This document shows positions 31,661 to 38,913 of a stretch of DNA of 62,089 nucleotides, in pieces (position 1 is the stretch's first letter; the number at the start of each line of letters is the position of its first letter). A program made the translations under genes and the position numbers. Source of the stretch: Legionella drozanskii LLAP-1. Lineage in GTDB: Bacteria > Pseudomonadota > Gammaproteobacteria > Legionellales > Legionellaceae. The stretch covers positions 138,297-200,385 of the forward strand of contig NZ_LNXY01000028.1 of NCBI RefSeq assembly GCF_001467585.1. The letters run 5' to 3'. The notes beneath the pieces are model-generated. The model ran no database searches, had not been told where the DNA came from, and saw only the letters and a list, made by a program, of their open reading frames with translations.

Positions 31661-32599
31661 ATGAAATATTCCGTCATTATTCCAATTTATAAAAACGAAA
31701 CCTCTATCCTGGAATTACTTGAAATATTAAAGAAAATGAATCATGAGCTTGCGGGGCACATGGAGGCGGTTTTCGTTATTGATGGCAGTCCAGATAAATC
31801 CTATGAAATTATTCGGGATAATCTTGAGTATTTAAATTTCCCAGCACAATTACTAGTTCATTCGCGTAATTTTGGTTCTTTTCCAGCTATACGTTCTGGA
31901 TTAATTGCGGCTAGAGGAAAGTTTTTTGGAGTTATGGCCGCTGATTTGCAAGAGCCTCCTGAATTATTAATAACTTTTTTCAAGGCGCTTGACGCTGATG
32001 AATGTGATGTTGCTATCGGCACACGCAATGGGCGTCAGGACCCGTTTTTATCACGAATGGCTGCGAATCTTTTTTGGGGTTTATACCGTCGCTTAATCAT
32101 CTCCGATATGCCACCAGGTGGCGTAGATGTGTTTGGTTGTAACCAACAATTTCGTGATCAGTTATTACAATTAGAAGAGTCTCGTTCTTCGCTTATCGCT
32201 TTGATTTTCTGGCTTGGGTTTCGCCGTAAATTGGTTCATTACGAACGGCAAAAACGCCAAAATGGCAAATCCGCATGGACTTTTCGAAAAAAATTGGATT
32301 ATATGATGGATAGCATTTTTGCATTCACAGATTATCCTATTCGCTTACTTATTCGCACAGGGGCAGTCGGTACAGTTTTTGCGCTTGGTCTAGGAGCACT
32401 CATTTTTTCCGCACGTATTATGGGGATGATTGTTGTGCCTGGATATGCAGCGATTATTCTCACCGTCCTCTTATTGGGCGCTCTTAATATGTTTGGGCTC
32501 GGATTAATAGGCACCTATGCCTGGCGAGGTTATGAAAATAGTAAACAGCGTCCTTTGGCTGTGGTCGCATTGAAGCACATCAATGAATGGGGTCATTAA
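31661..32599 (+). CDS. GtrB-like polyprenyl-phosphate glycosyltransferase (GT2)
   Basis: 312 residues. The N-terminal GT-A domain has YSVIIPIYKNE, the first acidic site in AVFVIDGSPD and the catalytic region VMAADLQEPPELL (D-x-Q-x-x-P), which is diagnostic for the DPM1/GtrB group. Two hydrophobic hairpins follow (around 230-285). Proteins of this type move a sugar from an NDP donor onto undecaprenyl phosphate on the cytoplasmic face. It is the first gene of a rightward cassette and overlaps the next by one base (TAATG). ATG 31661 is preferred over upstream TTG/GTG codons. No GtrA-type flippase gene is seen nearby. Confidence 0.85.
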   Translation: MKYSVIIPIYKNETSILELLEILKKMNHELAGHMEAVFVIDGSPDKSYEIIRDNLEYLNFPAQLLVHSRNFGSFPAIRSGLIAARGKFFGVMAADLQEPPELLITFFKALDADECDVAIGTRNGRQDPFLSRMAANLFWGLYRRLIISDMPPGGVDVFGCNQQFRDQLLQLEESRSSLIALIFWLGFRRKLVHYERQKRQNGKSAWTFRKKLDYMMDSIFAFTDYPIRLLIRTGAVGTVFALGLGALIFSARIMGMIVVPGYAAIILTVLLLGALNMFGLGLIGTYAWRGYENSKQRPLAVVALKHINEWGH

Positions 32600-33531
32600 T
32601 GAATAATTCGATAGCCAAACATCCAACCTCTGATGTTCAATCACTAACCATTGGCGAAGGAACAAGTATTTGGCAGTTTGTTATTATTTTGCCAGAGGCT
32701 AAAATAGGTTCTGAGGTTAATATTTGTTCACATTGTTTTATTGAAAATGATGTCCAGATTGGTGACCGAGTAACCATTAAATCTGGCGTACAACTATGGG
32801 ATGGGATTCGCATTGAAGATGATGTATTTATTGGCCCGAATGTTACCTTTACCAATGATAAATTTCCTCATTCTAAGCAATATCCCGAAAAGTTTTTAGA
32901 AACCCGCATTGAAAAAGGGGCTTCGATAGGGGCTGGTGCGGTAATTTTACCAGGCATTACTATTGGTGAAGGGGCAATGATAGGGGCTGGCGCGATTGTC
33001 ACTAAATCAGTCCCTCCTTATGCCATTGTGACTAGTCCTGCGAGTAAAGTAATAGGCTATATCAAAGCAGATACAGCTCTCTCTTCAATGCAACCCGATG
33101 CAAAGGTCGCAGAACCAATTGAAATCGGCGTAGGGAAAGTGAGTTTACACCAATTTAAACTTATGCAAGATCCACGCGGGGATTTATCAGTGGGTGAATT
33201 TATGCGAGAAATACCTTTTTTCCCAAAAAGGTATTTTTTGGTATTTAATGTTCCTGCGGAAAAGGTTCGTGGCGAACATGCTCATCAAGAATGTCATCAG
33301 TTCCTTATCTGCATTAAAGGGAACTGTTCTGTCATGGTAGACGATGGCAAGACCCGCAAAGAAATCATCCTTGATGCACCTAATAAAGGCCTCTATCTAC
33401 CGCCCCTAACTTGGGGGGTCCAATATAAATTTTCCCAAGAAGCAGTGCTTTTAGTTTTCACCTCTGACTATTATGAAGCGAATGATTATATTCGCAGTTA
33501 CAGCGAGTTTTGTGCACTTTTAGACAATTAA
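32599..33531 (+). CDS. fused N-acetyltransferase / dTDP-4-keto-6-deoxyglucose 3,4-ketoisomerase
   Basis: 310 residues in two domains. Residues about 15-165 are a left-handed beta-helix acetyltransferase with hexapeptide repeats (GEGTSIWQF, IGPNVTF, IEKGASIGAGAVILPGITIGEG). Residues about 180-305 are a WxcM-like cupin: FKLMQDPRGDLSVGEF, FLVFNVPAEKVRGEHAHQECHQFL and LYLPPLTWG, as in FdtA/QdtA ketoisomerases. This architecture is known in Xanthomonas WxcM and Shewanella FdtD, bifunctional enzymes for dTDP-Fuc3NAc or Qui3NAc. It isomerises the RmlB product and acylates the 3-amino sugar made after transamination. It overlaps the GT2 stop by one base and belongs to the same operon. Confidence 0.88.
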   Translation: MNNSIAKHPTSDVQSLTIGEGTSIWQFVIILPEAKIGSEVNICSHCFIENDVQIGDRVTIKSGVQLWDGIRIEDDVFIGPNVTFTNDKFPHSKQYPEKFLETRIEKGASIGAGAVILPGITIGEGAMIGAGAIVTKSVPPYAIVTSPASKVIGYIKADTALSSMQPDAKVAEPIEIGVGKVSLHQFKLMQDPRGDLSVGEFMREIPFFPKRYFLVFNVPAEKVRGEHAHQECHQFLICIKGNCSVMVDDGKTRKEIILDAPNKGLYLPPLTWGVQYKFSQEAVLLVFTSDYYEANDYIRSYSEFCALLDN

Positions 33532-33560
33532 AAGTTTGATGAAATGATTAAGGAACTAAC

Positions 33561-37787: not shown

Positions 37788-37833
37788 AATTATTGAAGTT
37801 ATCTAAAGTTTAATTGCCCTATCTAGGATGAAG

Positions 37834-38913
37834 ATGAAAAGAATAATATTTCTTGACTGGTTGAGAATTTTTTCATTCAGTAGTGTTCTAATTGGACATA
37901 AGTTCCATTCGATTTTGCTTAATATTTCTAATGATGATTCTGTACACGAATCCTCACGGTTTCTGATTAAATTAATCTTGCCTCTTGCTTATGCCGGAGG
38001 AGCTGGCGTTGTTGTATTTTTTCTTGTTTCGGGATATGTGATTAGTCATGTTTTACAAACTGAACAGCCTTTAGAATTTCTTATTAAGCGAATTTTCAGA
38101 ATCTATCCGTTGTATATTTTTGCTGTTTTATTTCAGTACTCTTTACTCTATTTTGTTAATCCTGCTGCGCTCAATTTAAAAATAATCATTCAGCAATTAC
38201 TCTTGGTCGGTGATTTTTTTCAAACGCCTTGCACCTTAGGTGGTGTGGAATGGACTTTACGAGTTGAAGTTCTATTTTATCTATTTATGTTTGTGTTGCG
38301 TTATTTTAAAATAATTGGTCAACATAGATATGCACTGCCTTGGGTTTTAATAATTACAACTTTAGCGCTCGGCTACATTCCCGCATTTCCTTCAGGGGCT
38401 CTAGCAGTAGGTTATTTAAATATTTATGGTCCTTTTTTGTTTCTAGGTGTGTTTTTTTGGTTATATGAAAATAAACAAGTTAGCTTTGCTCAGATGGCAG
38501 TTTTCACAGGTTTTATTTTTATCCAGCACTGGCATCTCATCGACACAATAAGTCCATATTGGCGACATGACCATTTTGCAGCCCTGGCTTTTCTTATATT
38601 TTTAGCAGTTTGGACACTCAGAGATAAACTATTTTTTAATCGCGTAATACTTTTTATATCCGAACTGACTTACTCTGTTTATCTATTACACAACTGGCTC
38701 TTTGATCACATCAAGCAGTGGACGATTGCAGGGGGACTTTTTCACCAGAATAGGTACGCTTTAATGATGTTGCTCGCTATTTCTGCGGTATTAGTAAAGG
38801 CAATTGAAAAACCAGGTATTAAACTCGGACGTTTATTAATTCAACACCTCAAAACACCAGCTCCTAACTATCCTACTGGAGCTGAGGAAGCGCTTGTTAA
38901 TGTTAAATATTAA
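37834..38913 (+). CDS. acyltransferase-3 (OafA-like) membrane protein
   Basis: 359 residues with about ten membrane helices and no SGNH domain. Family signatures: FLDWLRIFSFSSVLIGHKFHS, GGAGVVVFFLVSGYVIS and GVEWTLRVEVLFYLFMF. It is expected to O-acylate a surface sugar, probably the glycan built by the preceding genes. I use the ATG at 37834, which has AGGA five bases ahead; the in-frame ATG six bases upstream touches that site. The gene ends overlapping the DUF2520 gene by 14 bases. It is the second acyltransferase of this class in the window. Confidence 0.85.
   Translation: MKRIIFLDWLRIFSFSSVLIGHKFHSILLNISNDDSVHESSRFLIKLILPLAYAGGAGVVVFFLVSGYVISHVLQTEQPLEFLIKRIFRIYPLYIFAVLFQYSLLYFVNPAALNLKIIIQQLLLVGDFFQTPCTLGGVEWTLRVEVLFYLFMFVLRYFKIIGQHRYALPWVLIITTLALGYIPAFPSGALAVGYLNIYGPFLFLGVFFWLYENKQVSFAQMAVFTGFIFIQHWHLIDTISPYWRHDHFAALAFLIFLAVWTLRDKLFFNRVILFISELTYSVYLLHNWLFDHIKQWTIAGGLFHQNRYALMMLLAISAVLVKAIEKPGIKLGRLLIQHLKTPAPNYPTGAEEALVNVKY

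What the first reader, a model, noticed from the sequence alone, without database searches (positions are those of the whole stretch)
31661..38913. Self-contained lipid-linked deoxy-amino-sugar decoration cassette
RmlA, RmlB, a fused acetyltransferase/ketoisomerase, a GtrB-like polyprenyl-phosphate GT2, a GT-C-like protein with a beta-rich domain and an acyltransferase are in one direction with 1-46 base gaps. I infer a Gtr-like surface-modification system using a dTDP-3-amino sugar instead of UDP-glucose, with one membrane transferase and an O-acylase, and no GtrA flippase nearby. I know no described system with exactly this gene set.
Basis: partly seen in the sequence, partly recalled or inferred. 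Interest (0 to 1): 0.7.

Follow-up and report, generated by a model that had tools for sequence, protein, structure and literature searches.

The report
Split amino-sugar surface-decoration gene cluster
A Legionella-type bacterium carries a run of genes that probably makes an unusual acetylated amino sugar and hangs it on a surface polysaccharide, but one essential enzyme is missing from the run and probably comes from the O-antigen genes over 100 kb away, which in turn seem to depend on this run for their sugar supply.

Summary
The six genes are real, co-directional and tightly packed at 31661-38913: a GtrB/ArnC-like GT2, a fused N-acetyltransferase/3,4-ketoisomerase (FdtD type), a 752-aa membrane protein of an unassigned family, RmlB, RmlA and an acyltransferase-3 protein. 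'Self-contained' is wrong for this copy: it has no aminotransferase. Five of six other genus genomes with the FdtD/GT2 pair carry FdtB directly upstream. The window genome and L. nautarum lack it there; their nearest FdtB (about 40%) sits in a Wzx-type O-antigen operon, in which RmlD, RmlC-FdtA and FdtB were found but no RmlA, RmlB or acetyltransferase. rmlA and rmlB are single-copy, in the window cassette. Two relatives keep only acetyltransferase, RmlB and RmlA at the same site. The Gtr-like reading gains support: two related cassettes contain GtrA, one has YfhO-family proteins, and the 752-aa gene looks exchanged between close relatives. Best explanation: three-component glycosylation with undecaprenyl-phosphate-Fuc3NAc, interlocked with the O-antigen operon. 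Sugar, carrier, GT-C fold and acceptor are inferred. New variant of a known kind.

The parts
31661..32599 (+). GT2 polyprenyl-phosphate glycosyltransferase, GtrB/ArnC-like (carrier lipid and C-terminal membrane segments expected by homology, not tested)
   Evidence: PF00535 1e-19; PDB phmmer: Synechocystis sll0501 (5ekp) 9.9e-39, ArnC 5.8e-24; 69-96% identical copies in the six other FdtD-bearing genomes
32587..33531 (+). FdtD-like fused N-acetyltransferase (N-terminal) and dTDP-sugar 3,4-ketoisomerase (C-terminal)
   Evidence: PF05523 6.4e-52, hexapeptide 6e-26; PDB 4mzu 6.7e-123 over residues 12-311; R197 aligns with FdtA R17, G277 as in 4mzu
33561..35819 (+). 752-aa membrane protein, presumed GT-C transferase; unassigned family
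   Evidence: no convincing match in Pfam, NCBIfam, PHROGs or PDB; eight strong hydropathy peaks in residues 26-418; strand-rich C-terminal part only in a low-confidence model; relatives in 4 of 21 other genus genomes, 6 of 140 order genomes and 2 of 369 class genomes, own genome included; EEW at 52-54 invariant in 12 sequences
35821..36879 (+). RmlB, dTDP-glucose 4,6-dehydratase; only copy in the genome
   Evidence: TIGR01181 500.9 bits; next best match in the genome 29% identical
36894..37787 (+). RmlA, glucose-1-phosphate thymidylyltransferase; only copy in the genome
   Evidence: TIGR01207 494.7 bits; next best match 31% over a part
37828..38913 (+). Acyltransferase-3 family membrane protein (O-acylation presumed)
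   Evidence: PF01757 5.6e-19; homologues at the cassettes of G014, G016 and G019 but not in the stretches of G015 and G017; distant one in G082
30886..31314 (+). NttA-like gene, conserved left border of the site
   Evidence: PF24275 1.2e-38; same neighbour in G014, G011 and G013
38894..39766 (+). DUF2520 gene, conserved right border, overlapping the acyltransferase gene
   Evidence: PF10728 9.9e-32; same neighbour in G014, G011 and G013

Best explanation
The cassette is a Gtr-like three-component surface-glycosylation system whose donor is probably dTDP-3-acetamido-3,6-dideoxy-galactose (dTDP-Fuc3NAc). RmlA and RmlB make dTDP-4-keto-6-deoxyglucose and the C-terminal half of the FdtD-like protein isomerises it. 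An aminotransferase encoded in trans in the O-antigen operon (G000:C28:57655-58770, about 111 kb upstream on the same contig) aminates it, and the N-terminal half of FdtD acetylates it. The GT2 loads the sugar on undecaprenyl phosphate; a flippase in trans (the genome's single GtrA, or Wzx) turns it over; the 752-aa membrane transferase attaches it to a surface glycan, most likely the O-polysaccharide; the acyltransferase adds an acyl group to the product. In return the cassette supplies RmlA, RmlB and probably N-acetylation to the O-antigen operon, so the two loci depend on each other. Shown by sequence: gene content, copy numbers, distribution, selection on the genes, unusual divergence of the transferase gene. 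Inferred: sugar stereochemistry, carrier, GT-C chemistry, acceptor, and that the trans enzyme supplies the missing step.
For: 1) A DegT-family FdtB lies directly upstream of the GT2 in G015-G019 (59-100% identical to the G015 copy) and in G082 (63%); in G000 and G014 the nearest is 40-41% identical and lies in the O-antigen operon. 2) In the fetched stretches of that operon in G000, G014, G011 and G013 there are RmlD, RmlC-FdtA, FdtB and Wzx but no RmlA/RmlB, whereas G005's has RmlB, RmlD, RmlA, RmlC-FdtA and FdtB together; RmlA and RmlB are single-copy in G000. 3) G011 and G013 keep just a 164-aa acetyltransferase, RmlB and RmlA between nttA and DUF2520, and those RmlA/RmlB group with the window/G014 copies (RmlA 100/99, RmlB 86/95). 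4) The ketoisomerase half is under purifying selection (dN 0.039-0.041, dS 0.59-0.69) despite the local absence of FdtB. 5) GtrA is in the G082 cassette (PF04138 3e-16) and next to FdtD in G019; YfhO-family proteins lie by the G018 cassette genes. 6) NG86 dS of the 752-aa gene between G000 and G014 is 1.86 against 0.54-0.95 for the five other cassette genes, as if this gene alone was exchanged; GtrC is likewise the divergent, serotype-specific part of gtr operons (PMC3688519, passages). 7) G274 has two homologues beside ABC-2 transporter genes and ManC.
Against: No flippase in the window cassette. The 752-aa family matches no known GT-C family, gave 0.5% hhalign probability with a YfhO-like protein, and its structure model failed (pLDDT 37.9). 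The trans FdtB is only about 40% identical to cassette FdtBs, so it may prefer another substrate. The O-antigen operon has its own FdtA domain, and the two FdtA domains differ at position 97 (G versus R). G019's RmlA/RmlB, on the strand opposite to its FdtB-GT2-FdtD-GtrA run, group with G005's O-antigen copies, not with the other cassettes, so the gene set is not inherited as one block. G082 has FdtA without the fused acetyltransferase. The acyltransferase is not constant. The complementary FdtB pattern rests on 7 FdtD-bearing genomes, two of them close relatives. No chemistry was measured.
Confidence: 0.6

Rival explanations
1. The cassette is a decaying remnant: after losing FdtB the decoration function was lost, and only RmlA, RmlB and the acetyltransferase are still used, by the O-antigen operon.
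For: G011 and G013 keep exactly these three functions at the site; FdtB and GtrA are missing from the window copy.
Against: GT2, ketoisomerase half, acyltransferase and the 752-aa gene are open and show dN/dS of about 0.03-0.22 between G000 and G014.
Confidence: 0.15
2. The sugar is not aminated by the O-antigen-locus enzyme: the cassette makes a different dTDP-6-deoxy sugar or acts with another DegT aminotransferase of the genome.
For: No aminotransferase in cis; nine DegT-family matches in the genome, four of them full length; trans FdtB only 39-41% identical to cassette FdtBs.
Against: The other three full-length ones are 23-31% identical; the fused N-acetyltransferase, closest to 4mzu, needs an amino group.
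Confidence: 0.15
3. The acceptor is not O-polysaccharide but lipid A/core or protein (ArnT- or oligosaccharyltransferase-like use).
For: ArnC is the second-best solved relative of the GT2; the membrane protein has no family match.
Against: Best GT2 relative is the GtrB-like sll0501; metabolic tie to the O-antigen operon; homologues beside ABC-2 transporter genes in G274; exchange of the transferase gene fits a variable glycan acceptor.
Confidence: 0.25

Closest known systems
gtrABC O-antigen glucosylation operons of Salmonella and Shigella (PMC3688519; passages seen)
   Same: GtrB-like GT2, a membrane transferase that varies while neighbours are conserved, GtrA in two sister cassettes
   Different: enzymes for a dTDP amino sugar in the cassette; no GtrA in this copy; transferase of an unassigned sequence family
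Three-component pentofuranose systems (PMC11127046; passages seen)
   Same: lipid-linked donor, flippase, GT-C transferase, sugar-conversion enzymes beside them
   Different: MATE flippase and pentofuranose donors; GT136 family transferase
CsbB-GtcA-YfhO teichoic acid glycosylation (PMC8035078; passages seen)
   Same: GT2 plus GtrA plus large membrane transferase; components can be encoded apart and one GtrA can serve several systems
   Different: Gram-positive acceptors, GlcNAc donor
FdtD of Shewanella denitrificans (PDB 4mzu; organism and biochemistry recalled, no paper seen)
   Same: same domain order, aligned over residues 12-311 at E 6.7e-123
   Different: a single enzyme; says nothing of the transfer steps

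Membership tests
dTDP-Fuc3NAc pathway | RmlA and RmlB | tested here: met
   TIGR01207 and TIGR01181 above cut-off
dTDP-Fuc3NAc pathway | 3,4-ketoisomerase of the galacto (FdtA) type | tested here: inconclusive
   PF05523 met; position 17 is R as in FdtA 2pa7 and 4mzu, position 97 is G as in 4mzu, H in 2pa7; that these positions set stereochemistry is recalled
dTDP-Fuc3NAc pathway | aminotransferase FdtB in the cassette | tested here: not met
   no DegT gene in the window cassette; nearest at G000:C28:57694
dTDP-Fuc3NAc pathway | N-acetyltransferase FdtC | tested here: met
   hexapeptide half aligned to 4mzu and 7s43; acetylated sugar not shown
Three-component (Gtr-like) glycosylation | GT2 polyprenyl-phosphate sugar synthase | tested here: met
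   sll0501 and ArnC homology over residues 5-306; carrier lipid not tested
Three-component (Gtr-like) glycosylation | flippase in the cluster | tested here: not met
   single GtrA of the genome is at C31:191580; present in cassettes of G082 and G019
Three-component (Gtr-like) glycosylation | GT-C fold transferase | tested here: inconclusive
   no family match; model pLDDT 37.9
Three-component (Gtr-like) glycosylation | sugar found on an extracytoplasmic glycan | not testable with these tools
   needs chemistry

The most novel reading that the evidence does not exclude
A new family of membrane glycosyltransferases, in this sample almost confined to Legionellaceae, uses undecaprenyl-phosphate-linked 3-acetamido-3,6-dideoxyhexose. 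In the window's clade the decoration cassette and the O-antigen operon have reciprocally lost pathway genes and so became obligately interdependent; their two ketoisomerases may even make two epimeric sugars through one shared aminotransferase.
Probability: 0.35. Interest if true: 0.62.

Novelty: new variant of a known kind. Interest (0 to 1): 0.45.

Why it matters
If true, it would add a dTDP-3-amino sugar to the donors of three-component surface glycosylation, give a role to a membrane-protein family without any assigned relative, and show how a decoration cassette becomes tied to a host polysaccharide operon by mutual gene loss. G011 and G013 look like a natural subtraction: the decoration genes are gone, the shared supply genes remain. 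It also warns that a cassette that looks self-contained may not be.

Tried and rejected
Searches of Pfam, PHROGs and PDB with this family found nothing convincing. hhalign of the family against a YfhO-like and a DUF7024 protein gave 0.5% and 0.4% probability, so YfhO kinship is not claimed. A remnant of FdtB in the window or in G014's stretches was sought by tblastn: only weak, chance-like matches, best E 0.098 far from the cassette. Promoter and terminator scans gave no excess over shuffles (23 found, 27.6 expected; 7 found, 7.3 expected), so no operon claim rests on them. Rejected: that the nttA-site rmlAB of G011/G013 came from a G005-like O-antigen operon; they group with the cassette genes. 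Papers joining Legionella with Fuc3NAc/Qui3NAc: I saw none relevant among the 12 of 124 listed or the 2 of 2.

Full report
OBSERVATION. The six genes exist as described. The window is G000:C28:138297-200385 of a 3.56-Mb genome in 34 contigs. The species was not determined.

GENE FUNCTIONS. RmlA and RmlB pass their NCBIfam cut-offs. The fused protein aligns over residues 12-311 with 4mzu (E 6.7e-123), a WxcM-like protein that I recall as Shewanella denitrificans FdtD. Its residue aligned to FdtA position 17 is R and to position 97 is G, as in 4mzu; FdtA 2pa7 has R and H. That these positions govern galacto versus gluco products is recalled, not seen here. I therefore favour Fuc3NAc without having shown it. 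The GT2 is closest among solved proteins to sll0501 (9.9e-39) and then ArnC (5.8e-24). The acyltransferase is PF01757. The 752-aa protein has no convincing match in the libraries searched.

THE MISSING STEP. A 3-amino sugar needs an aminotransferase, and none is in the cassette. In the genus sample 7 of 22 genomes have the FdtD fusion (G000, G014-G019; 66% identity or more). Five of these seven (G015-G019) have a gene of about 365-381 aa directly upstream of the GT2; three of the five were scanned with Pfam and match PF01041 (G015, G016, G019), and all five are 59-100% identical to the G015 protein. G082, of another genus in the family, has one too. In G000 and G014 tblastn found no trace at the cassette. 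The nearest relative in G000 is 39-41% identical and lies at C28:57655-58770, about 111 kb upstream on the same contig, in a cluster with Wzz, RmlD, an RmlC-FdtA fusion, Wzx and two GT2 genes. Its closest solved relatives include QdtB.

MUTUAL DEPENDENCE. In G000's O-antigen stretch (C28:50000-66000) no RmlA, RmlB or acetyltransferase was found (two of its 14 listed frames were not scanned with Pfam, and one scanned frame of 402 aa has no match). The corresponding stretches of G014, G013 and G011 show no rmlA/rmlB homologue either, apart from ManC-type genes. RmlB and RmlA are single-copy in G000, and G014, G011 and G013 each have one RmlB-grade match (77-87% identity; next matches about 28%), at the nttA site. 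RmlA copy number was tested only in G000. G005 instead has RmlB, RmlD, RmlA, RmlC-FdtA and FdtB in one run. G012 has its FdtA/FdtB and its RmlB/RmlA on different contigs, so a split is not unique to this site. G011 and G013 retain at the nttA site only a 164-aa acetyltransferase (79-80% identical to the N-terminal half of FdtD), RmlB and RmlA. These group with the window and G014 copies (RmlA 100/99; RmlB 86/95). The simplest reading is that the cassette once stood there and the decoration genes were lost while the shared supply genes were kept; a later gain in G000/G014 is not excluded. The RmlB tree holds 19 rows and the RmlA tree 17; the cut RmlB of G018 was left out, and no RmlA was taken from G002, G003 and G020. 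Against a single inherited block, G019's RmlA/RmlB group with G005's O-antigen copies (97/92 and 89/94). Complementarity of the two FdtB types among the 7 FdtD genomes is complete (5 cassette type only, 2 O-antigen type only), but G000 and G014 are close relatives, so this is few independent events. G018 also holds an aminotransferase 37% identical to the O-antigen FdtB in another cluster (30% to the cassette type), which I do not count as FdtB; if it were one, the pattern would be 4 against 2 with one exception.

THREE-COMPONENT LOGIC. The window cassette has no flippase, and the genome's single GtrA match is on contig C31 near another GT2. GtrA matches occur in 20 of 22 genus genomes, mostly away from this cassette, so mere presence of GtrA in a genome means little. 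In G082, however, the cassette reads acyltransferase - FdtB - GT2 - FdtA - GtrA - 752-type protein - RmlB - RmlA, and in G019 a GtrA gene follows FdtD directly (with the frame). In G018 YfhO-family proteins lie by the cassette genes, one of them on the opposite strand; neither G018 nor G019 has a 752-type protein, and G019's transferase was not identified. G015 and G016 carry two and three tandem copies of the 752-type gene. A review (PMC8035078, passages) reports that one GtrA can serve several systems and that Wzx-type flippases have been proposed in some; absence here is therefore not fatal.

EXCHANGE OF THE TRANSFERASE. Between G000 and G014 GT2, FdtD, RmlB, RmlA and acyltransferase have NG86 dS 0.54-0.95 (YN00 0.46-0.90), DUF2520 0.61, nttA 0.34, and seven genes of the O-antigen cluster 0.43-0.74, while the 752-type gene has 1.86 (YN00 gave no value for it). 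G014's second copy elsewhere is only slightly closer (1.64). The gene looks exchanged in place. Salmonella GtrC families are likewise far more divergent than GtrA and GtrB (PMC3688519, passages). dN well below dS in all six genes, including the ketoisomerase half, argues against decay.

DISTRIBUTION. The 752-type protein was found in 5 of 22 genus genomes including the window's; its profile matched 6 of 140 order genomes and 2 of 369 class genomes, one being the window's own. In G274 two copies, the second cut by the contig end, stand beside ABC-2 transporter, ATPase, GT4 and ManC genes, which suggests an O-polysaccharide setting.

LIMITS. No chemistry. The structure model is unusable. The acceptor and the acyl group are guesses. 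Transcription was not tested. Literature searches covered an open-access library only, and only listings were seen except for passages of three papers.

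Noticed in passing
L058:8388-12287 (G014:C24): L. nautarum has a second copy of the 752-type gene at another site, followed by a 543-aa protein with a DUF7024 domain; no homologue of the cassette's sugar-pathway genes in the fetched stretch.
   Followed up: partly
L060:5391-11885 and L059:3233-7726: Three and two tandem copies of the 752-type gene in G016 and G015, perhaps different linkages or acceptors for one donor.
   Followed up: no
G000:C31:188241-191912 (L099): Another cluster with aminotransferase, ArnC-like GT2, epimerase and the genome's only GtrA match; a possible source of the flippase.
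   Followed up: partly
window 26650-28146: Protein kinase-like gene (PF00069 1.2e-9); described only.
   Followed up: no
window 28310-29392: Patatin-like phospholipase gene (PF01734 1.8e-23) on the minus strand near the cassette.
   Followed up: no
L064:6667-7659: RmlC fused to an FdtA domain in the O-antigen cluster; its position-97 equivalent is R, unlike the window's FdtD (G).
   Followed up: partly
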